Of a stretch of DNA of 22,602 bases, positions 7,261-14,951 are shown piece after piece. The position numbers were made by a program, and so were the translations under genes. Below the pieces are notes generated by a model that saw nothing but the letters and a program-made list of their open reading frames with translations, was not told the origin of the DNA and did no database searches. Within the stretch, counting starts at the first letter, position 1. Each line of letters starts with the position of its first letter. Origin of the DNA: a virus; the IMG/VR virus record IMGVR_UViG_3300042508_000004, positions 1 through 22,602 of that record. One strand, 5' to 3'.

Positions 7261-7923
7261 TCACCTCACCGGGTAGCGCACTTGGGGCGTGCGATACATA
7301 TCCTGACGATTCTTCCCTTCGCCAAGCTGCTTGAGCATAGCCAATGCTTCGTCGTACCGCTTCTGGTATCCGGCGATTACATCAGCTTCACCCTTCATGA
7401 ACGTATACGCTTCTAGCAGCGCGCCGTAAAGAAGCACGGACTCGAAGTTGTCGCCAAGCCACGACGTACCCGCCTCTGTGATGGACTGCGGGTAGTAGAA
7501 ATAATGCAGCTCAAACTGGTAGTTCAGGTCTGGCGTGGGTCCGAGGATGTAGGAATCCACATCAAAGAACGCGTAATAGAGCGGCTTATCGGTATCGGTA
7601 GGCGACGGATAGGCAGCCCGGATATAGCTAACGTCCTTGTTCAGCAGATACTCGTAATCACCCGTGACCGGGTCAATCACCGCCAGAGAGAAGTTGGACA
7701 GCCAGTCCGAGGGGACCGAGAGATACTTGTTGCTCGCCGTGCAGTTGCCCGTCACGTTCTTGCGTAGGTCCAGAAGCTGGACCGTGTTGAAGATACGCTC
7801 TTCGGCGTTGACAATGAACGTATTAATTTGCTCAGTCGAAGTGAGTCCGCCCGACCCCACCGTGTCCGGGAAGTCGTTTTCGGTGTAACCCTTAATGGTT
7901 TCGACAAGCTGAGCGTAGTTCAT
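7261..7923 (-). CDS. Head-to-tail adaptor protein (SU10-like)
   Basis: The 220-residue product has an N-terminal helical region (MNYAQLVETIKGYTENDFPD, INTFIVNAEERIFNTVQLLD). A beta segment follows with the hallmark NKYLSVPSDWLSNFSLAVID, then YYAFFDVDSYILGPTP, ELHYFYYP and a C-terminal helical region (LLYGALLEAYTFMKGEADVI, AGYQKRYDEALAMLKQLGEG). This plan is that of the adaptor proteins that form a ring under the portal of short-tailed phages such as SU10 (compare T7 gp11). It binds the portal and builds the nozzle. The ATG overlaps the stop of the 48-aa gene by one base (TAATG). The adaptor call is family knowledge plus pattern recognition. Confidence 0.8.
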   Translation of the reverse strand: MNYAQLVETIKGYTENDFPDTVGSGGLTSTEQINTFIVNAEERIFNTVQLLDLRKNVTGNCTASNKYLSVPSDWLSNFSLAVIDPVTGDYEYLLNKDVSYIRAAYPSPTDTDKPLYYAFFDVDSYILGPTPDLNYQFELHYFYYPQSITEAGTSWLGDNFESVLLYGALLEAYTFMKGEADVIAGYQKRYDEALAMLKQLGEGKNRQDMYRTPQVRYPVR

Positions 7924-8069
7924 TAGCCAAGCTTCTTGCTGCTATGCGTACCTTTGGTAGCCGCACCGGTCCCGCGCGTCTTCACGGTCTGGGTGTTAGG
8001 TACGTTGTTCGGGTAGCCGCTGTTGCCCAGCGGGTTATGCGCTGGCTTGGGCTGATTGACGTTATCCAT
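7923..8069 (-). CDS. Tiny basic tagged protein (48 aa)
   Basis: The 48-residue product starts MDNVNQPKPAHNPLGNSGYP and ends with a basic Gly/Thr tail (TRGTGAATKGTHSSKKLG). I chose the ATG at 8069, which lies inside the end of the preceding 41-aa gene, over the longer frame from 8135. The upstream extension is Arg-rich, overlaps that gene and lacks its own ribosome site, while AAAGG lies upstream of 8069. The RGTGAATKG segment at residues 32-40 resembles the ATKGKTKG tag of the basic proteins encoded at 10402-12210. It is probably disordered. Function is unknown. Confidence 0.7.
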   Translation of the reverse strand: MDNVNQPKPAHNPLGNSGYPNNVPNTQTVKTRGTGAATKGTHSSKKLG

Positions 8070-8187
8070 TTTTATCGACCTTTCCCATATCCTTGATCGG
8101 CTTCTTGCCGCTCTTCTGGTTCGCAACCTTAGCAAGGTTACGTCCGAGCTTCAGCATCTGGTCGTTAGTCTTACCACCCTTAGCCAT
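8062..8187 (-). CDS. Tiny basic MAKGG protein (41 aa)
   Basis: A 41-residue frame starts MAKGGKTNDQMLKLGRNLAK, continues VANQKSGKKPIK and ends VDKNG. It is supported by a clean GGAG seven bases before its ATG, a one-base gap after the stop of the zinc-ribbon gene, and an 8-base overlap with the next gene. Its N-terminus repeats the AKGG element shared by the basic cluster at 10122-12210. Nearly a quarter of the residues are lysine. It could bind nucleic acid or an acidic virion surface; I cannot assign a function. Confidence 0.72.
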   Translation of the reverse strand: MAKGGKTNDQMLKLGRNLAKVANQKSGKKPIKDMGKVDKNG

Positions 8188-8188
8188 A

Positions 8189-8629
8189 TCAATTCTCCGT
8201 CGTCTGAATAGTCACGGTACCGACCTGACCACTGCCTGCCAATGTATCAGGAAGACCCCACAAACCCAAGGGATTTTGAAAACCCACAGGGTTCCACCCC
8301 CAGTGAATGATTCGGCTACCTTGCGAAGGGGTACCGAACGCGTCAGTATCCTCGGTCGGTTGTGTAACTGGCTGAGTGCGTAACCCCGTCAAACCGGCTT
8401 GCCGGTAGGTCGTATCGGGGCGCGGGTTGCGCAGCGCCTGTGGGTCATCCACCGGGTACATACCCAGTTGAAGCTGCGGCTGATCGGGTTCCCAGCAGGT
8501 GGGGCACACAAGGATGTTGACGTTCTTCGTCTTGATGACGAGCGACCTCAGTTCCTTCAGCTTGTAGCGAAAGCCGCAGCGGTCACACTGCGAAATCGCG
8601 TACTTACCAGAGGCGAACCGGTTAGGCAC
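8189..8629 (-). CDS. Zinc-ribbon protein of the neck/tail module (146 aa)
   Basis: The 146-residue product has an N-terminal CxxC pair (CDRC, C15 and C18) and a second pair (CPTC, C42 and C45) separated by 23 residues, a typical zinc-ribbon knuckle. A Pro/Gln/Thr-rich linker follows, then a hydrophobic C-terminal part (IIHWGWNPVGFQNPLGLWGL). It starts with GTG, preceded by AGAGG at a spacing of 6. Its start lies inside the end of the homing endonuclease gene. I know similar zinc-ribbon proteins beside adaptor genes in aquatic phages, but not a proven role. A structural zinc site in a neck or tail protein is the likely reading. Confidence 0.8.
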   Translation of the reverse strand: MPNRFASGKYAISQCDRCGFRYKLKELRSLVIKTKNVNILVCPTCWEPDQPQLQLGMYPVDDPQALRNPRPDTTYRQAGLTGLRTQPVTQPTEDTDAFGTPSQGSRIIHWGWNPVGFQNPLGLWGLPDTLAGSGQVGTVTIQTTEN

Positions 8630-9113
8630 TTATATCCTCTCTCACTACCGAAGCCGTCTTCATCGACGCCCGGATGTCTCTGAGTTTTTGCCCAATCTCC
8701 ATACGCCGGTTATGGACCTCGTCAGGCAGGGGGTTATAGGGACCCGCATATTTCCTACCGTCCGCTGACGTAAGTGGGTACTGGAGCGCTAACTCTACTT
8801 GCTCCTTCTTCACTACCACATAAGGAGCTATGACTTCAAGGAACGCTATCGCATCTTTACTGCGTACGCGCCACACGTAGCATACAGAGTTATTCATGTG
8901 GTGCCGCCGACTCTTGGTTATCGGTGTTATATTACCGCCAAAATGCTCCTTGAACAGATTCAGGCACGGTGTAGACGTCTGAGTAACGGACGCGGTTAGC
9001 AAGTTACGTACTCTACGCCGGGTGTTTTTGTTCTTGGATATCTCAACAAAAACAGAGCCTTCGCCGTCGAAAAACCCCGCAGCCCACACGATAAAAAGCA
9101 GGCCGGTGAGCAC
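8622..9113 (-). CDS. LAGLIDADG-type homing endonuclease
   Basis: The 163-residue frame carries one LAGLIDADG-like motif, WAAGFFDGEGS at residues 10-20, with the acidic metal-binding residue at E18 (D16 also acidic). It continues with the typical fold: a beta strand (SVFVEIS), LLTASVTQTSTPCLNLFKEH, FGGNI, the YVWRVRSKDAIAFLEVIAPY block and a KKEQVELALQYP helix. A single motif implies a homodimer. Such enzymes cut long DNA sites in relatives lacking the gene and spread by repair. It is free-standing, between an adaptor gene and the zinc-ribbon gene, overlapping the latter by 8 bases. The GTG at 9113 gives the longest protein; the GTG at 9089, just before the motif, is an alternative start. Confidence 0.85.
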   Translation of the reverse strand: MLTGLLFIVWAAGFFDGEGSVFVEISKNKNTRRRVRNLLTASVTQTSTPCLNLFKEHFGGNITPITKSRRHHMNNSVCYVWRVRSKDAIAFLEVIAPYVVVKKEQVELALQYPLTSADGRKYAGPYNPLPDEVHNRRMEIGQKLRDIRASMKTASVVREDISA

Positions 9114-9122
9114 GACGCCTAC

Positions 9123-9863
9123 TTAGTAGAACATCTGACGCGGCGCTAGGCGCAGCGGTGCTTTTTCGCGGTCCTCGTCTGCGGCCTGCTGCCACAACTC
9201 ATCATACATGGCCTTGAGGCCGATGGACCGCTCCAGCGCACCGGGCAGTTTTAGCGACAGATGGTATGCCAAGCCAGCCACGAGGGGCGGCAGCATACGG
9301 AACGGGATGTCCTGCGTCGTTGTACCCGAACCTCCGTCCTGAAGACGGCGCAGTCGGAAGTACACAAAGGTATAGAAGTTGTTCTGGTCCGGGGCAGGCC
9401 ACACGTTGATCGACGGATGATCGACACCCGTGGAGGGGTTGGTCCCTGCGGGTTGTCCACCCGCCGGATAGGTTGCGCCTGACTGGCGGTTGATCCACAC
9501 CTGAATAGGCCGACCCTGCGCGTTCTTGTTAGGGATCGTGAGGTACGTATCGGCGCTGATACGGTTAATGTTGATGTCCGTCTGCGCCTGCCCAGTCTGC
9601 GTACGGATGACGTGGTCGAACAGGTCGATGGTATCCACGGGGAGCGGATATGTAATCTGCCCCTGCACCATCGGGATGGAGCCTTGCTCCAGCGTCCAGA
9701 GGTTGATGCCCTTGTTCGCCCACTCAATGGTCAGCAGGTTCAGGCTGCGCCGTGCCGTGCGAAAGTCATAGCCGGTCCGCATTTCCACGCCACAACGCTC
9801 GAACGCCTCTTCGAAGAGCTCGTTAAGGTTGAGGTTAAAGGATGTCGTACCGCTGGTGGTCAT
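9123..9863 (-). CDS. Head-tail connector/adaptor protein (246 aa)
   Basis: The 246-residue product has an N-terminal helical pair (FNLNLNELFEEAFERCGVEM, RTARRSLNLLTIEWANKGIN). A beta region follows (GQITYPLPVDTIDLFDHVIR, YLTIPNKNAQGRPIQVWINR, VYFRLRRLQDGG), then a C-terminal helical part (MLPPLVAGLAYHLSLKLPGA). The helix-then-ITYPLPVDTIDL plan parallels the SU10-like adaptor at 7261-7923, so I call it a neck or tail-accessory protein analogous to P22 gp4 or T7 gp11. GGAG lies 7 nt upstream and the start overlaps the previous stop (ATGA). It could equally be a tail completion protein; the exact ring it forms is not decided by sequence. Confidence 0.75.
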   Translation of the reverse strand: MTTSGTTSFNLNLNELFEEAFERCGVEMRTGYDFRTARRSLNLLTIEWANKGINLWTLEQGSIPMVQGQITYPLPVDTIDLFDHVIRTQTGQAQTDININRISADTYLTIPNKNAQGRPIQVWINRQSGATYPAGGQPAGTNPSTGVDHPSINVWPAPDQNNFYTFVYFRLRRLQDGGSGTTTQDIPFRMLPPLVAGLAYHLSLKLPGALERSIGLKAMYDELWQQAADEDREKAPLRLAPRQMFY

Positions 9864-10135
9864 TTCTGTCTCCGCGCTGCCTGTACGCGCTTAGGCGCAC
9901 CGGGAGGCTGCCCCAACCGTTTCTTCTGCGCGATACGCGTCTTCTTTTCCGCCGGAGTCATCTCCGACGACGTCTTGGGGGTCTTATCAGAAATACGCTT
10001 ACTAGGTCTACAGTAAGGTGTGCCGCGCTTCTCACCGGGCTGACGCCCGCAGGCTTTACCCGTGCGGACGTCCTTCCAATCTTCTTGGAACCAGCGCTTA
10101 AGCGAAGCGCCTTTCTCGGTCTTACGAACTGCCAC
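9860..10135 (-). CDS. Basic KRWFQEDWKDV protein (91 aa)
   Basis: I place the start at a GTG at 10135, with GGGG about 8 nt upstream, giving 91 residues that begin AVRKTEKGASLKRWFQEDWK and continue DVRTGKACGRQPGEKRGTPY, CRPSKRISDKTPKTSSEM. The frame is open up to 10303, but that extension is Arg/Pro-rich and lies wholly inside the neighbouring gene. The LKRWFxEDWKDVxTGxxCGR...YCRP pattern belongs to a small basic protein that I know from phages and large DNA viruses, function unknown. Two cysteines (C29, C42) could pair or bind metal. The C-terminus (TPAEKKTRIAQKKRLGQPPG, then a basic tail) is very basic, suggesting nucleic-acid contact. Confidence 0.75.
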   Translation of the reverse strand: MAVRKTEKGASLKRWFQEDWKDVRTGKACGRQPGEKRGTPYCRPSKRISDKTPKTSSEMTPAEKKTRIAQKKRLGQPPGAPKRVQAARRQK

Positions 10136-10400
10136 CTTTGTTACCCCAGTTCTTGGCACCGACCTTGCGGCACTTGGAGATAGCCCCGGAGGCGTAGGCG
10201 GAAGGAAAGACTTTGTAGCGCGCCTTAACCTTGGAATAGCACGCGTCCTTGGCGCTGCCACCTTCGGCCATGCGCTTCGCCTTAACCTTGCCGCCCTTGG
10301 CATAGACGGTGACCGAGTCGGGGTTATCCTTCCGACGAATAGTCTTCGCCTTTGGCATCTTGGACGCCATCATAGCGCCCATACCCCGACTCGGTCGCAT
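10122..10400 (-). CDS. Basic AKGG protein with CYSKVK domain (92 aa)
   Basis: The 92-residue product has a basic N-terminus, an AKGG element at 34-37 followed by KVKAKRMAEGG, and a compact C-terminal domain (ACYSKVKARYKVFPSAYASG, ISKCRKVGAKNWG) with C54 and C77. That domain is recognisable in marine phages and large DNA viruses (I believe the DUF5872 type), with unknown function. The start follows the upstream stop by one base (TAACATG). Several internal ATGs near the start (M7, M10, M11, M15) leave the exact N-terminus open. Lysine and arginine dominate. Association with packaged DNA or the virion interior is inference. Confidence 0.78.
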   Translation of the reverse strand: MRPSRGMGAMMASKMPKAKTIRRKDNPDSVTVYAKGGKVKAKRMAEGGSAKDACYSKVKARYKVFPSAYASGAISKCRKVGAKNWGNKGGSS

Positions 10401-10401
10401 G

Positions 10402-10716
10402 TTAGCAGCCCTTCATCTTTCCGCCCATGGCCATCTTGACCATCTTGGTGTGGGTCTTGCCCTTGGTAGCGCAGCCGTCGGCCTTACCGACAGTGCCACC
10501 CTTAGCCATCTTCGGCATTGCACGACCCATCGTGTCAGCCGACTTTTTGGTCATGGCACGACCGGCCTTATCGGCCATCTTCTTCATGCCCATCTTCTTG
10601 TCCTTCATCTCGAACTCCTTACCGACCTTAGAGGGAACGCCCACCTTCTTGGCGAACTTGGGGTTGTTGGCCACGGCGGCCATGAAGCTCTTCTGCTTGG
10701 GTGTCTTGCTAGGCAT
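10402..10716 (-). CDS. Basic tagged protein, FAKKVGVP domain plus ADGCATKGKT tail (104 aa)
   Basis: Residues 1-40 (KQKSFMAAVANNPKFAKKVG, VPSKVGKEFEMKDKK) match a short helical domain found alone in many phages. The middle has GRAM repeats (GRAMTKKSADTMGRAMPKM). The C-terminus carries the cluster tag: MAKGGTVGKADGCATKGKT at 70-88, then AMGGKMKGC. It therefore looks like a phage helical domain fused to the Lys/Gly tag. The last residue is Cys. An AAGGAC precedes the ATG, and the stop of the holin-like gene is one base upstream. Function is unknown. Confidence 0.8.
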   Translation of the reverse strand: MPSKTPKQKSFMAAVANNPKFAKKVGVPSKVGKEFEMKDKKMGMKKMADKAGRAMTKKSADTMGRAMPKMAKGGTVGKADGCATKGKTHTKMVKMAMGGKMKGC

Positions 10717-10717
10717 G

Positions 10718-10882
10718 TTAGTCCTTCCCGAGAAATTTTTGCACCGTATCTGTCTCGTAGATACGGATGCCAGTCCAGATGATGGTGAAGATAGCTGCGA
10801 CGGCAGGTAGCATGTCCATTATAGTCCCAACAACGGTAACCATAGAGACTGCGTCCAGTAGAGTCTTTGATTCGTCAGTCAT
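10718..10882 (-). CDS. Small holin-like membrane protein (54 aa)
   Basis: A 54-residue frame starts MTDESKTLLDAVSMVTVVGT, continues IMDMLPAVAAIFTIIWTGIR and ends IYETDTVQKFLGKD. It has one clear membrane segment at about residues 24-41, preceded by another moderately hydrophobic helix (12-21), a polar N-terminus and a charged C-terminus. Both boundaries have one-base gaps to neighbours (TGACATG and TAACATG), the operon's usual junction, which supports it as a real gene. The LPAVAAIFTIIWTxIRIYET pattern is one I know from tiny phage membrane proteins suspected to be holins. It would form lesions in the inner membrane at lysis. No endolysin is next to it, so the lysis role is not proven. Confidence 0.78.
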   Translation of the reverse strand: MTDESKTLLDAVSMVTVVGTIMDMLPAVAAIFTIIWTGIRIYETDTVQKFLGKD

Positions 10883-10883
10883 G

Positions 10884-11138
10884 TCAGCACTTCCACGCGC
10901 GAAGAGACTTGTTGATACGGCTGTTCGGGTCGTTAGCGGTCTTAGAGCTCGTCAGCTTCTTCTTCATCCCAGACATCCGGGCGCAGAATGACTTCTTGCG
11001 CGAACCGCCTTCAGGCTGCGGGGCCTTGAGCCCCGGCTTCCCCGGATTGGCTTTGTTGTAAGATGCACGCCCCTTGGCGTTCAGCCCGCCCTTTTCGGAC
11101 TTGCCTTCCTTACGTTGCCAAGCCGGGGTCTTAGCCAT
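10884..11138 (-). CDS. Basic PAWQRKEGK protein (84 aa)
   Basis: The 84-residue product starts MAKTPAWQRKEGKSEKGGLN and continues AKGRASYNKANPGKPGLKAP, KKSFCARMSGMKKKL and NKSLRAWKC. This N-terminus (PAWxRKEGKxxxGGLNxKGR) is a widespread basic small protein of phages and large DNA viruses (I believe DUF6321), with unknown function. It is rich in Lys, Gly and Ser and probably largely disordered. Its ATG overlaps the previous stop by one base (TAATG). It ends in Cys, as do the products at 10402-10716 and 11138-11875. Confidence 0.82.
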   Translation of the reverse strand: MAKTPAWQRKEGKSEKGGLNAKGRASYNKANPGKPGLKAPQPEGGSRKKSFCARMSGMKKKLTSSKTANDPNSRINKSLRAWKC

Positions 11139-11875
11139 TAGCAGATTTTCCCTTTGGTGTGGCCCTTCTTGGCAATGCCGTCGCCACGGGTGACGGAGCC
11201 GCCCTTGGCGTAGTCGCGGCCCGGATTAGCTGCCGCCCGGAAAGGAGACTTGATAAAGTCCCCCAAGGCATTTGCACCCCGACGCAGACCTTCTCTCATG
11301 CCAGTTTTTGCAGCGCGGGCCGACTCTGAACCAACGCGCATACCCGAAGCGGGCTTTTTAGTTGGAGTTTCGGCCTTCTTGACCGGGGCTTCAGCCTTCT
11401 TGACCGGGGCTTCAGCCTTCTTGACCGGGGCTTCAGCCTTTTTGGTCGGAGCAGCGGCGCGGGGCTTCGGTTTGGGCTTCGCCGTGCTAGCGGCTTCGCG
11501 GGCGCGGACAGCAGCAAGGTTGGCGTCCATCAGCTCTTTGTCGGTCAGGGCACGACGCAGGTCAGTATCAATGCTCGGCATACCAAGGCTCAGCCCGCTG
11601 GTGTCAGCGCCGCCCACAACGAGGTCACCATCAGCGTAGCGCTTGACCTTGCCGCCCTTGGCGTACTTCTTCACGGCCTTCAGGTCTTCGGCATTTTTCT
11701 TGGACATGCGGTTACCTGAAGCGATGGCATCGCCAACTGACGGGCGGGTGCTCCGCGTAGCGGGCATGAGCTTTTTGGTTTCTTTACCAACCTGACGCGA
11801 GACACGGTTGCCCGACTCCATCGACTCCTTCATCGACGGCATACCGCCCGAGCCGAACTTGCGCTTCTTCATCAT
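11138..11875 (-). CDS. Long basic tagged protein with KKAEAPV repeats (245 aa)
   Basis: The 245-residue product is basic and low in complexity. Two related segments (SGNRVSRQVGKETK at 21-34 and SGNRMSKKNAEDLK at 53-66) suggest an internal duplication. An AKGG element (YAKGGKVKRYADGDL) lies at 71-85, and a short ordered-looking part (SIDTDLRRALTDKELMDANL) at 101-120. A disordered Pro/Lys linker carries KKAEAPV three times, plus a variant, from about 145. A helical segment (RRGANALGDFIKSPFRAAAN) follows. The C-terminal tag YAKGGSVTRGDGIAKKGHT plus KGKIC is a variant of the cluster's tag. It overlaps both neighbours by 1-4 bases. The plan resembles an internal DNA-binding virion protein with linkers; that is inference. 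Confidence 0.78.
   Translation of the reverse strand: MMKKRKFGSGGMPSMKESMESGNRVSRQVGKETKKLMPATRSTRPSVGDAIASGNRMSKKNAEDLKAVKKYAKGGKVKRYADGDLVVGGADTSGLSLGMPSIDTDLRRALTDKELMDANLAAVRAREAASTAKPKPKPRAAAPTKKAEAPVKKAEAPVKKAEAPVKKAETPTKKPASGMRVGSESARAAKTGMREGLRRGANALGDFIKSPFRAAANPGRDYAKGGSVTRGDGIAKKGHTKGKIC
11373..11435 (-). repeat. Three perfect 21-bp coding repeats
   Basis: Three identical copies of a 21-bp unit (plus strand gccttcttgaccggggcttc plus a) stand in tandem, followed by a degenerate fourth copy to about 11456. They encode the KKAEAPV repeats of the linker. Perfect identity at all codon positions indicates recent expansion by slippage or unequal recombination. Confidence 0.95.
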
Positions 11876-12210
11876 ACAAACCGTCCCTTCGTCTTACCCT
11901 TGGTGGCACAACCGTCGGCGCGCTTGGAAGCGGTACCGCCCTTGGCCATCTTCTTGACCGCGCCGCCTTTCTTCATCATCATCGCCTTACTTGGGTCAAC
12001 CGGAGCCATCCCTGCCGGGGGCGGCCCCTCGGGAACATTCATCCTTGGCATGCGATCAATAAAGCCCCGATCAACCGGAGCCATACCCGGTCGCTGTCCG
12101 ATGCGGCCAAGTGCTGCGCCAATCCCTCCGCTCATTGGCATCTGCGGCTGCGCCCGTTGCTGTGCCGCTATCTGGCGACCCATACTGGCAAACTTACGGC
12201 GGTTCATCAT
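11872..12210 (-). CDS. Basic tagged protein (112 aa)
   Basis: The 112-residue product starts MMNRRKFASMGRQIAAQQRA. The middle is Pro/Met/Gly-rich, with GMAPVD repeated at 42-47 and 67-72. The C-terminal half is the most complete version of the cluster tag: MKKGGAVKKMAKGG at 79-92, then ADGCATKGKTKG at 98-109. An AGGAG lies about 8 nt upstream. The start overlaps the glycosyltransferase stop and its own stop overlaps the next start (ATGA both times). It is likely disordered with a defined C-terminal tag. Function is unknown. Confidence 0.78.
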   Translation of the reverse strand: MMNRRKFASMGRQIAAQQRAQPQMPMSGGIGAALGRIGQRPGMAPVDRGFIDRMPRMNVPEGPPPAGMAPVDPSKAMMMKKGGAVKKMAKGGTASKRADGCATKGKTKGRFV

Positions 12211-12941
12211 GCTACACTCCTATTCGGAACAACCATCGGGTAGAGTACGTCGCGCCCGTAATCGCCAACATACTCCTGCACACCCATGTGACCCAGCGCG
12301 ATGCTAGGGTCGACCCACACCTCGAAGCCCAGCTCGCGGGTGCGGTCGCAGAAGAGGTAATCCTCTCCCATGTAACCTTCTTCGGTCAGCTGGAAGTCAA
12401 ACAAGCACGGGATCATGCGGTCCGTCTTCTTGTCGTAGTAGGTCCACTCAGGGTGGGCCTTGGTCATCTCGACAAACACCTCACGGCGCACCAGCATAAA
12501 CGCCGTGGCGACACGCTCAGCACGAACCAGACCCATACCGTTCATGGTCAGGTCACCGTTTTCGTCGTACTCAAGGTTGGCAATGTAGGTCTTGGTCTCG
12601 CTGCGGGTGCGCGGGACACCAGCGACGATGCCTTTTTTGGGGTCGGAACCCCACGCCATCAGGCGGAAGATGTCGTCAGGCTCGAAGTTGATATCCGAGT
12701 CGATAAACATCAGGTAGTCGCAGTTGGACTCCAGCATGTCCTGCGACAGCAGGTTGCGCGCCCGAGAGACCACTGAGCAGCCGCAGATGGAGCCAATCTG
12801 AATCTCGATGCCGTGTTGCGGGGCCGCCTGCGCGAAGCGCGCAAGGGAGATGGCCAACTTCAAGGACACCTTGAAGTCGTAGGCCGGCAGAGCAATGAAG
12901 ATGCTCTTCCCGGCTAGATCATAACTGCGCTGTGCCTGCAT
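12207..12941 (-). CDS. GT-A glycosyltransferase (family 2-like)
   Basis: The 244-residue product has the start of a Rossmann-like GT-A fold (KSIFIALPAYDFKVSLKLAI) and a nucleotide-sugar metal site, MFIDSDINFEPDDI, with DSD at 81-83. GIVAGVPRTR follows at about 104-113. The C-terminal acceptor part is GYMGEDYLFCDRTRELGFEV, then WVDPSIALGHMG. E193/D194 could act as the catalytic base and H218 as a metal or phosphate ligand, as in related enzymes. It would transfer a sugar from a nucleotide sugar to an unknown acceptor in the cytoplasm. Its position between a structural protein and the basic cluster suggests modification of a virion protein rather than of host envelope, but that is inference. 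The start has only a weak GGTGA ribosome site. Confidence 0.85.
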   Translation of the reverse strand: MQAQRSYDLAGKSIFIALPAYDFKVSLKLAISLARFAQAAPQHGIEIQIGSICGCSVVSRARNLLSQDMLESNCDYLMFIDSDINFEPDDIFRLMAWGSDPKKGIVAGVPRTRSETKTYIANLEYDENGDLTMNGMGLVRAERVATAFMLVRREVFVEMTKAHPEWTYYDKKTDRMIPCLFDFQLTEEGYMGEDYLFCDRTRELGFEVWVDPSIALGHMGVQEYVGDYGRDVLYPMVVPNRSVA

Positions 12942-13866: not shown

Positions 13867-13979
13867 GATTTATCTCCGTGTAGTAGCACATACCCATGTC
13901 GTCGCTACTACGTCTGCTAGGACAGTCGACACGGGTTAAATACCTAGTGACGTACTTGTATCACGCTATTAGCACAAAG
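13867..13979 (-). other. Leader region after the terminator, no gene
   Basis: With the terminator and adjacent hairpin, this makes up the only long internal gap (13867-14039). Apart from the leader hairpin and the ribosome site I find no open frame. A GTGATA-16-TATTTA pair on the minus strand around 13938-13965 is too weak to call a promoter, although a promoter here would make sense after a terminator. Confidence 0.5.
13880..13911 (-). promoter_or_regulatory. Leader hairpin just upstream of a ribosome site
   Basis: gtagtagc at 13880-13887 pairs with gctactac at 13904-13911. Inside it, acat at 13888-13891 pairs with atgt at 13896-13899 around a four-base loop, leaving a four-base bulge at 13900-13903. 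The stem ends 2 nt from the GGAG (ctcc on the plus strand, 13874-13877) of the 138-aa gene. It could control initiation or protect the new 5' end of the transcript. No known riboswitch class is recognised. Confidence 0.6.
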
Positions 13980-14010
13980 AAAAGACCCCCCGACTCTCGC
14001 CGGGGGGTCT
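13976..14010 (-). terminator. Intrinsic terminator after the major capsid gene
   Basis: agaccccccg at 13983-13992 is perfectly complementary to cggggggtct at 14001-14010, a 10-bp GC-rich stem with an 8-nt loop. On the minus strand it is followed by TTTCTTT, giving a weak but clear U-rich tract. The plus-strand side has no such tract, so it works leftward. It begins about 30 nt after the capsid stop and lies upstream of all remaining genes, so it would lower, but probably not abolish, their transcription. Confidence 0.88.
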
Positions 14011-14012
14011 CA

Positions 14013-14036
14013 AAGTCCTAAACTTCCCTAGGACTT
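14013..14036 (-). other. Second hairpin between capsid stop and terminator
   Basis: aagtccta at 14013-14020 and taggactt at 14029-14036 form a perfect 8-bp inverted repeat with an 8-nt loop. It lies directly between the capsid TAA and the GC-rich terminator. It may act as a 3'-end stabiliser of the capsid mRNA or assist termination. No U tract follows it, so it is not a terminator alone. Confidence 0.7.
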
Positions 14037-14039
14037 AGC

Positions 14040-14951
14040 TTAGGCAGCGCCTACCGAACCATACATGCCCAGCGGGTCAGACCAGCCGAACGAGTAACGC
14101 TCACGGCTCTTGTAACGGACGTTGCCGGTGTCGAAGTCGCCGTCCATGCTCTGAGCGAGCGGGGTACGGACGAAGTGCTTCAGACCATTCGGAACATCGG
14201 TCGTCAGGAACCAAGCATCGGTGTCGGTCAGGAAGTGGTTAACAGTGTAACCCTCCGGGATCGAGCCGTTGCTCTTGATGGCGTTGATGTCGTTGTCGGC
14301 GGTCGACACGCGGAGTTCAGTCTCCAGCAGTCGGGTCGCAACGAACATCAGGCTCGGCGGAACCACCAGCTTACGCGGCTTAGCCGCGATGAGCAGGCCA
14401 CGTTCATCCGTCCACGCAGCGATCTGAATGACAGCCGCTTCAAGCGACGTTTCGTTCAGGTCAGCTGGCGTGCTGGGGATGTTCGAGTTGGTACCACCGG
14501 AGACCAGCGGGTGAGCGCTCGAAAACAGCGGCTGACCGTCACCACCGGGGTAGTCCGAGTCAAAACCGTTGTTCAAGACCGCAGCAGCCTTGGTCTGCTT
14601 GGTGTACGCCATGGCACGGGCCAACGCTTTGGTATAACGAGCCGAGAGGCTGTCATACAGGTTGTCTTCGATGGCTTCTTCCGTGAGCGAGAACCCGAGG
14701 GCAATCGTCTCATGGTTGTAGCGAGCCGTGAAGACTTCCTGAGCGTTGTCATAAGCAATGGCAGAACCTTCGTTCTTAACCGGAGCAGCCGAGAAGCCCG
14801 ACAGCTTGGTTTCTTCTTCGAACGAACGCTCAGAGCTTTCAGTCTCGAAGATTTGCTTATGCTCTTCGCCATAGCGGGCGTATTCCAGACCGAACAGGGC
14901 GTTCAGGCCGGGCAGGAGCTCCTTGAGGAGCTGTGCGCGTGAAATAGCCAT
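14040..14951 (-). CDS. Major capsid protein (Mu gpT-like, HK97 fold)
   Basis: The 303-residue product starts MAISRAQLLKELLPGLNALF and shows the gpT-like plan of HK97-fold capsid proteins. An N-terminal helical arm leads to YARYGEEHKQIFETESSERS FEEETKLSGF and a central helix-rich part (IALGFSLTEEAIEDNLYDSL, YTKALARAMAYTKQTKAAAV). The marker PGGDGQPLFSSAHPLVSGGT is followed by the A-domain segment KPRKLVVPPSLMFVATRLLE and a C-terminal beta part (FVRTPLAQSMDGDFDTGNVR, RERYSFGWSDPLGMYGS). It forms the shell hexamers and pentamers. AAGGAG lies 9 nt before the ATG. The gene follows scaffold and two small structural genes, and a strong terminator stands right after it, fitting high expression. No maturation protease is present in the window. 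Confidence 0.88.
   Translation of the reverse strand: MAISRAQLLKELLPGLNALFGLEYARYGEEHKQIFETESSERSFEEETKLSGFSAAPVKNEGSAIAYDNAQEVFTARYNHETIALGFSLTEEAIEDNLYDSLSARYTKALARAMAYTKQTKAAAVLNNGFDSDYPGGDGQPLFSSAHPLVSGGTNSNIPSTPADLNETSLEAAVIQIAAWTDERGLLIAAKPRKLVVPPSLMFVATRLLETELRVSTADNDINAIKSNGSIPEGYTVNHFLTDTDAWFLTTDVPNGLKHFVRTPLAQSMDGDFDTGNVRYKSRERYSFGWSDPLGMYGSVGAA

What the first reader, a model, noticed from the sequence alone, without database searches (positions are those of the whole stretch)
7923..12210. Cluster of Lys/Gly-rich proteins sharing an AKGG / ADGxATKGKTKG tag
At least five proteins carry versions of one short tag. It is C-terminal as MAKGGTASKRADGCATKGKT in the 112-aa product, MAKGGTVGKADGCATKGKT in the 104-aa product and YAKGGSVTRGDGIAKKGHT in the 245-aa product. 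It is internal as YAKGGKVKRYADG and YAKGGKVKAKRMAEGG, and N-terminal as MAKGG in the 41-aa product; the 48-aa product has RGTGAATKG. The bodies attached to the tag are otherwise unrelated, so the tag looks like a shared signal (targeting to the procapsid, DNA binding or a processing site) rather than simple paralogy. I recognise such tags in aquatic phages but know no function for them. Together with two untagged basic proteins they make up most of a 2.4-kb block.
Basis: partly seen in the sequence, partly recalled or inferred. Interest (0 to 1): 0.82.

Follow-up and report, generated by a model that had tools for sequence, protein, structure and literature searches.

The report
C-terminal tag on variable phage proteins
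A group of freshwater phages puts the same 20-odd-residue C-terminal tag on many otherwise unrelated small basic proteins encoded beside the capsid genes; the tag is conserved while the bodies change rapidly, so it looks like an address label, probably for loading proteins into the virus head, though that destination is not shown.

Summary
The tag is real. A profile of it finds 576 matches at E<=1e-4 in relatives of the window and none at E<=0.01 in reversed ORFs. It usually ends exactly at the stop codon (350 hits). In the window it is carried by three proteins (112, 245 and 104 aa), not five or more: the AKGG of the 41- and 92-aa proteins and the RGTGAATKG of the 48-aa protein are other motifs.

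Across relatives the tag sits on 143 body clusters. Residues D, G, A, G, T are (nearly) invariant while their third codon positions are free, so selection acts on protein. At one syntenic position the bodies are 30% identical, the last 17 residues 85%, the upstream gene 79%. 251 of 262 tagged ORFs lie between major capsid protein and head-tail adaptor. Three untagged neighbours (DUF5872, DUF6321, YPSAYA) occur together in one cyanophage protein annotated as a virion protein, and all three were in proteins detected by MS in S-CREM2 virions.

Best reading: a C-terminal capsid-targeting tag on hypervariable cargo, working like the T4 internal-protein signal. That step is inferred. The phage's own ejection and DarB-like proteins lack the tag, which limits it.

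The parts
11875..11946 (-). tag, C-terminal 24 residues of the 112-aa protein (AKGGTASKRADGCATKGKTKGRFV)
   Evidence: profile E 1.8e-11, ends at the stop
11872..12210 (-). 112-aa tagged protein, body of no known family
11141..11209 (-). tag of the 245-aa protein (AKGGSVTRGDGIAKKGHTKGKIC)
   Evidence: profile E 3.4e-7, ends at the stop
11138..11875 (-). 245-aa tagged protein with Lys/Ala/Pro repeats
   Evidence: weak low-complexity match to phrog_25538
10438..10506 (-). tag of the 104-aa protein, sub-terminal, followed by 11 residues ending in Cys (type II)
   Evidence: profile E 6e-5; alignment of relatives
10594..10716 (-). N-terminal helical module (MPSKTPKQKSFMAAVANNPKFAKKVGVPSKVGKEF) of the 104-aa protein; also in phiKZ PHIKZ165.1 and other jumbo phages
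   Evidence: phrog_16759 E 7e-17; 109 phage records; AF2 helices between residues 6 and 50, block pLDDT 77-87 to residue 40
10402..10716 (-). 104-aa tagged protein
10884..11138 (-). DUF6321 protein, untagged here; relatives carry the tag
   Evidence: PF19846 E 2e-19; tagged body cluster of 12
10122..10400 (-). 92-aa basic protein with the KDACYSKVKARYKVFPSAYASG module (called YPSAYA here)
   Evidence: phrog_727 E 4e-19
9860..10303 (-). DUF5872 protein (the 5' end of this ORF overlaps the 92-aa gene; true start probably further downstream)
   Evidence: PF19197 E 8.7e-15, residues 56-129
10718..10882 (-). 54-aa probable single-pass membrane protein inside the block
   Evidence: sequence; conserved at this place in several relatives
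12207..12941 (-). glycosyltransferase-like gene directly upstream of the first tagged gene
   Evidence: phrog_1574 E 8e-36, phrog_12406 glycosyltransferase E 3e-4
14040..14951 (-). major capsid protein, HTVC023P type; upstream border of the tag interval
   Evidence: phrog_371; phage relatives
9123..9863 (-). head-tail adaptor; downstream border of the tag interval
   Evidence: synteny with genes annotated adaptor / portal-adaptor / tail adaptor in DSL-LC04, Pag-Yong1, CRP-901; SU10_adaptor appears in the Pfam scan of the set
8062..8187 (-). 41-aa basic protein (MAKGGKTN...LGRNLAKVANQ), separate module, not the tag
   Evidence: the module is fused to the tag in other genomes
7923..8069 (-). 48-aa protein with its own conserved RGTGAATKG motif

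Best explanation
The motif is a selected C-terminal sorting tag: a flexible, basic (about +5) peptide ending R[AG]DG[CI]Ax[KR]GKT[KR]G[KR][MFI][VC], usually preceded by a KGG linker, that a virus lineage attaches to a fast-changing set of small, mostly disordered basic proteins. Most likely it binds an inner or assembly-stage component of the HTVC023P-type head and so loads these proteins into the particle, as the N-terminal capsid-targeting sequence does for the variable internal proteins of T4. Shown: motif, C-terminal placement, protein-level selection, many unrelated bodies, confinement to the head-gene block. Supported indirectly: virion location, through untagged neighbour modules found in cyanophage virions. 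Inferred: the tag itself as targeting signal, its partner, and the roles of the bodies (DNA condensation and/or injected counter-defence).
For: Profile statistics and C-terminal anchoring. 143 body clusters under one tag; no Pfam family in 134 tagged proteins beyond DUF6321, two linker-histone-like low-complexity matches, two marginal single matches and one assembly chimera. Near-invariant D, G, A, G, T with free third codon positions; within-genome tag pairs 71% identical in protein but synonymous codons 51% identical (39% expected by chance). Same syntenic place: body 30%, tag 85%, flanking gene 79% identical; even with the flanking gene at 95% or more, 20 of 32 body pairs are under 35%. Tags only near the capsid gene in 26 long records plus 4 phages; 251 of 262 tagged ORFs between MCP and adaptor, 261 of 262 on the MCP strand; 107 of 108 loci from the IMG/VR pattern scan carry head genes of the clade. 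Tag variants agree within a genome across different bodies (z 3-5 at seven positions). Neighbour modules: DUF5872, YPSAYA and DUF6321 in one chain in cyanophages S-P4 and S-SCSM1, S-SCSM1 gp29 annotated 'virion protein', S-CREM2 gp137 and gp160 detected by MS in CsCl-purified virions (PMC10665884 Table 3). Precedent: T-even internal proteins are a highly diverse set with only the CTS conserved (PMC3012670).
Against: No tagged protein has been seen in a virion; the MS evidence is for untagged modules in other phages, with few peptides (4 and 7). The genome's own probable ejection protein and DarB-like giant protein carry no tag, so it is not a general ejection signal. HTVC023P, DSL-LC04 and CRP-901 have related heads, and the first two some of the neighbour modules, but no tag. 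A basic disordered tail could equally be a DNA- or RNA-binding element. Within-genome agreement of tags could also come from gene conversion.
Confidence: 0.5

Rival explanations
1. The tag is a generic nucleic-acid-binding tail: the proteins are small histone-H1-like condensers of packaged or replicating DNA, and the tag is simply their most conserved DNA contact.
For: Tag net charge +0.23 per residue, bodies +0.07, neighbours DUF6321 and DUF5872 +0.2, against negative values for TerL, portal and MCP; two tagged proteins match PF00538 linker histone at up to 2.7e-5; the helical N-terminal module resembles HTH DNA-binding folds, but not significantly (E>3).
Against: Electrostatic binding would not need invariant Asp, Ala and Thr, nor fixation relative to the stop codon. 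The linker-histone match is probably a composition effect.
Confidence: 0.2
2. A single fast-evolving gene family: tagged genes are paralogues whose disordered bodies drifted beyond recognition, and the tag is the last conserved functional site, acting outside the virion, for instance on a host target.
For: Tandem tagged genes, disordered repetitive bodies, recurring KGG linkers and short shared modules.
Against: The tag also sits on recognisable independent proteins (DUF6321, and the N-terminal jumbo-phage module), so it is transferable; strict location between MCP and adaptor argues for a head role.
Confidence: 0.15
3. The tag anchors proteins to the outer surface of the capsid (decoration or cement-like), possibly modified by the glycosyltransferase encoded next door; Ser/Thr before the core could be the acceptor.
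For: Cement and glycosyltransferase-like genes lie directly upstream; Ser is common at positions -21 to -18.
Against: Some tag-bearing loci lack the glycosyltransferase (L039, L077, L096, L141) and still have the tag.
Confidence: 0.08
4. A processing site for a head protease.
For: T4 and jumbo phages cleave internal proteins; the N-terminal module of the 104-aa protein ends in G-K-E, which resembles (from memory) the S/A/G-X-E consensus of the phiKZ protease.
Against: The tag ends at the stop codon in most cases, so cleavage would release almost nothing; no head protease family seen in the part of the Pfam list shown for the sibling genome; the E of G-K-E varies.
Confidence: 0.04

Closest known systems
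T4 internal proteins (IPI, IPII, IPIII) with the capsid-targeting sequence (CTS)
   Same: One short conserved terminal signal on a set of small, highly diverse proteins (PMC3012670).
   Different: CTS is N-terminal, loads the scaffold core and is removed by the head protease (own knowledge); here the tag is C-terminal, apparently not cleaved, encoded between MCP and adaptor, with no sequence similarity known to me.
Phage P1 Dar proteins (DarB N-terminal packaging signal)
   Same: A terminal stretch of at most 30 residues is sufficient to send a foreign reporter into the capsid (PMC9024508).
   Different: No consensus is shared among the Dar proteins, whereas here one consensus is shared by all; the DarB-like protein of the sibling genome lacks the tag.
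DUF6321 / DUF5872 / YPSAYA virion-associated proteins of T4-like cyanophages (phrog_727, phrog_3477)
   Same: The three modules are encoded together in the block; in S-P4 and S-SCSM1 they are one chain annotated as structural/virion protein.
   Different: Split into three genes here; the C-terminal tag was not found in those phages.
phiKZ PHIKZ165.1 family (phrog_16759)
   Same: The N-terminal module of the 104-aa protein is about 44-70% identical to proteins of jumbo and some other phages; in Stenotrophomonas phage BUCT555 it lies between the terminase and MCP genes.
   Different: There a free-standing protein of about 45-60 aa or the head of larger proteins, without tag.
HTVC023P-type pelagiphages and Planktothrix phage Pag-Yong1
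   Same: Similar head gene order, and MCP 65-71% identical.
   Different: HTVC023P has no tag; Pag-Yong1 has one.

Membership tests
T4-type internal protein with CTS | conserved short terminal signal on several unrelated bodies in one genome | tested here: met
T4-type internal protein with CTS | signal at the N terminus and homologous to CTS | tested here: not met
   tag is C-terminal; so not filed as a member, only as working like one
T4-type internal protein with CTS | removed by the prohead protease | tested here: inconclusive
   no protease family among the 25 of 35 Pfam families shown for the sibling genome
T4-type internal protein with CTS | protein located inside the virion | not testable with these tools
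   only indirect: untagged neighbour modules in cyanophage virions
DUF6321 (PF19846) | profile match above gathering score | tested here: met
   70.5 bits against 28.5, window 10884-11138
DUF5872 (PF19197) | profile match above gathering score | tested here: met
   55.8 bits against 27.5, window 9860-10303
P-loop (Walker A) protein; the core G[CI]Ax[KR]GKT fits GxxxxGK[ST] | Lys of GKT invariant, and a fold around the loop | tested here: not met
   GHT in 12 of 227 distinct tags; the tag ends about five residues later and is predicted disordered in the one protein modelled
Linker histone H1 (PF00538) | profile match by the tagged proteins in general | tested here: not met
   only two of 134 tagged proteins match, 2.7e-5 at best
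HTVC023P-type podovirus head module | MCP and gene order TerL, portal, GroES, scaffold, MCP, adaptor | tested here: met

The most novel reading that the evidence does not exclude
A universal C-terminal address tag by which one widespread freshwater phage lineage loads an open-ended, rapidly exchanged repertoire of proteins into its head: any body that acquires the roughly 25-residue tag by recombination becomes virion cargo, possibly delivered into the host with the genome.
Probability: 0.35. Interest if true: 0.88.

Novelty: new variant of a known kind. Interest (0 to 1): 0.72.

Why it matters
If the tag loads proteins into heads, it gives a sequence handle that picks out the virion cargo of an abundant uncultivated phage group straight from metagenomes, and a compact peptide for packaging chosen proteins into a phage capsid. 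The bodies would be an unexplored store of proteins, possibly counter-defence factors as in T4. Even without that, it is a clear case of a protein tag kept constant on a hypervariable set of genes; the six tag variants I searched for occurred in no paper of the held library.

Tried and rejected
Chance low complexity: rejected by the reversed control. DNA-level repeat or recombination site: rejected by free synonymous positions. Walker A P-loop: the pattern fits but GHT variants and predicted disorder argue against it. Similarity of the N-terminal module of the 104-aa protein to the scaffold C terminus (AKKLGlTPEQYA against AKKvGvPQSVGKE): hhalign probability 18%, 10 columns; kept only as a lead. 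Acyltransferase-tag fusion in a Patulibacter MAG (L365): the tag lies at a contig end in DNA of lower GC, judged an assembly chimera and not used as evidence. PDB sequence searches of four block proteins and the MCP: nothing. Fold searches: DUF6321 clearly matches only viral proteins that are mostly named DUF6321, no PDB match; 104-aa model nothing significant. tblastn of the tag in phage records finds only Pag-Yong1 and two other 65,014-bp records with the same match values; a second variant finds nothing. PHIKZ165.1 in the literature: nothing found.
Full report
Setting. The window is a 22,602-bp virus record, all plausible genes on the minus strand: terminase, portal, GroES-like, scaffold-like protein, two head proteins, major capsid protein (MCP), cement, a glycosyltransferase-like gene, the block in question, adaptor, then tail genes. 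The MCP is 65-71% identical to those of Pelagibacter phage HTVC023P, DSL-LC04 and Planktothrix phage Pag-Yong1. A 62-kb record (G012, locus L159) carries an MCP 100% identical to it and the same genes at 100% identity across the compared region.

The observation. A profile built from C-terminal 24-mers finds three proteins in the window: 112 aa (E 1.8e-11), 245 aa (3.4e-7) and 104 aa (6e-5). In 39,194 ORFs of the fetched loci it gives 576 hits at E<=1e-4 and 653 at E<=0.01; reversed ORFs give none at E<=0.01. 350 of the hits at E<=1e-3 end exactly at the C terminus, and 211 of 277 tag-bearing loci have two or more tagged ORFs. Some loci overlap, so these are counts of places, not of independent genomes; the distinct tagged proteins number about 500. 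The seeds were chosen with a regular expression, so invariance was re-measured on profile hits, 20 of 227 of which do not fit that expression: D 225/227, G 227, A 215, G 227, T 226.

Selection is on protein. Codons of the invariant residues vary freely in the third position. Within a locus two tags share 71% of residues, but synonymous codons agree in only 51% (39% expected from codon usage; 45% between loci). This argues against a DNA repeat and against very recent duplication as the cause.

One tag, many bodies. After removal of the tag, 471 bodies fall into 143 clusters at blastp 1e-6; the largest (226) seems to be held together by shared modules. 134 representatives match almost nothing in Pfam. 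Immediately behind the glycosyltransferase gene, pairs of loci show 79% identity in that gene, 30% in the body and 85% in the last 17 residues; where the flanking gene is at least 95% identical, 20 of 32 body pairs are still below 35%. Body identities were measured on forced global alignments, so 25-30% is about what unrelated sequences give. Short modules are combined with the tag in several orders (N-terminal helical module, KKE..FMKKKGAPK, KSADTxGRAM, HEK..., LGRxLAKV, DUF6321), usually through KGG linkers. Two tag forms exist: type I ends at the stop (311 of 499 distinct proteins), type II is followed by up to 20 residues and ends in or next to Cys (114) and includes most proteins with the N-terminal helical module.

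Place in the genome. In 26 long virus records and 4 phages the tags found lie near the capsid gene and not elsewhere. Of 262 tagged ORFs in loci that show both genes, 251 lie between MCP and adaptor and 261 are on the MCP strand; 106 of 112 such loci have a tag. Three of 11 hits in the bacterial genome collection (L358, L360, L364, all metagenome bins) carry genes of this phage clade; another, L365, is judged a chimera; the rest show no tag. HTVC023P, DSL-LC04 and CRP-901 have related heads but no tag.

Neighbours point to the virion. Three untagged block proteins are DUF5872, DUF6321 and the YPSAYA module. In cyanophage S-P4 and S-SCSM1 gp29 all three are one chain, annotated 'structural protein' and 'virion protein'; S-SCSM1 virions were analysed by MS (PMC9602691), but that gp29 was detected is read from its annotation, not from a table. 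In S-CREM2, gp137 (DUF6321-type C terminus, 4 unique peptides) and gp160 (DUF5872 plus YPSAYA, 7 unique peptides) were detected by MS in CsCl-purified virions (PMC10665884 Table 3). DUF6321 and YPSAYA in these proteins are supported by blastp to the window modules where tested; the DUF5872 assignments are by eye. Peptide counts are low and contamination cannot be excluded. The N-terminal module of the 104-aa protein occurs in jumbo phages including phiKZ.

Structure. AlphaFold2 of the 104-aa protein: helical N-terminal module (block pLDDT 77-87 over residues 1-40), tag region around 50, i.e. probably disordered. DUF6321: helical, mean pLDDT 82.5, no PDB match.

How it most likely works. Conserved terminus, variable body, head-gene location and virion-associated neighbours are the same combination as the T-even internal proteins, described as a highly diverse set with only the capsid-targeting sequence conserved (PMC3012670); in P1 the first 30 residues of DarB suffice to package a reporter (PMC9024508). 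I therefore read the tag as a C-terminal capsid-targeting signal. Shown: the tag, its selection, the body turnover, the location. Supported indirectly: virion association of the block. Inferred: partner, loading step, function of the bodies. Against a general ejection signal, the sibling genome's ejection protein (phrog_4287) and DarB-like giant protein have no tag.

Limits. No tagged protein has experimental data. The sample is drawn by relatedness to this clade or by one exact DNA pattern, so rarer carriers elsewhere may be missed. Within-genome agreement of tag variants fits a common partner but also gene conversion.

Noticed in passing
window 9860-10303, 10122-10400, 10884-11138: DUF5872, YPSAYA and DUF6321 are three genes here but one chain in T4-like cyanophages (S-P4, S-SCSM1), a Rosetta-stone link between three families of unknown function.
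   Followed up: partly
window 10594-10716: The N-terminal module of the 104-aa protein occurs in over 100 phage records, mostly jumbo phages (phiKZ PHIKZ165.1, PhiPA3, PBECO4); it also faintly resembles the C terminus of this phage's scaffold (hhalign probability 18%).
   Followed up: partly
window 7923-8069: The 48-aa protein carries its own conserved RGTGAATKG motif; similar-looking RGxGAA strings occur near the ends of two HTVC023P proteins.
   Followed up: no
window 8622-9113: 163-aa product looks like a LAGLIDADG-type homing endonuclease (LAGLIDADG_1 appears in the Pfam scan) next to the adaptor gene; absent from most relatives shown.
   Followed up: no
L371 (sibling genome G012), 13976-14356: The sibling genome's Pfam scan includes an RNA polymerase alpha C-terminal domain, probably this 127-aa gene (by its sequence).
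   Followed up: no
L370 12061-17001: DarB-like antirestriction giant protein (at least 1647 aa) in the sibling genome, without the tag.
   Followed up: partly
L365 1-300: Patulibacter MAG contig ends in a short piece of tag-bearing phage DNA fused to an acyltransferase ORF; probably an assembly chimera.
   Followed up: yes
L360 4606-5217: A tagged 203-aa protein with a Trp-containing, apparently globular stretch matching no Pfam or PHROG family; a candidate folded cargo protein.
   Followed up: partly
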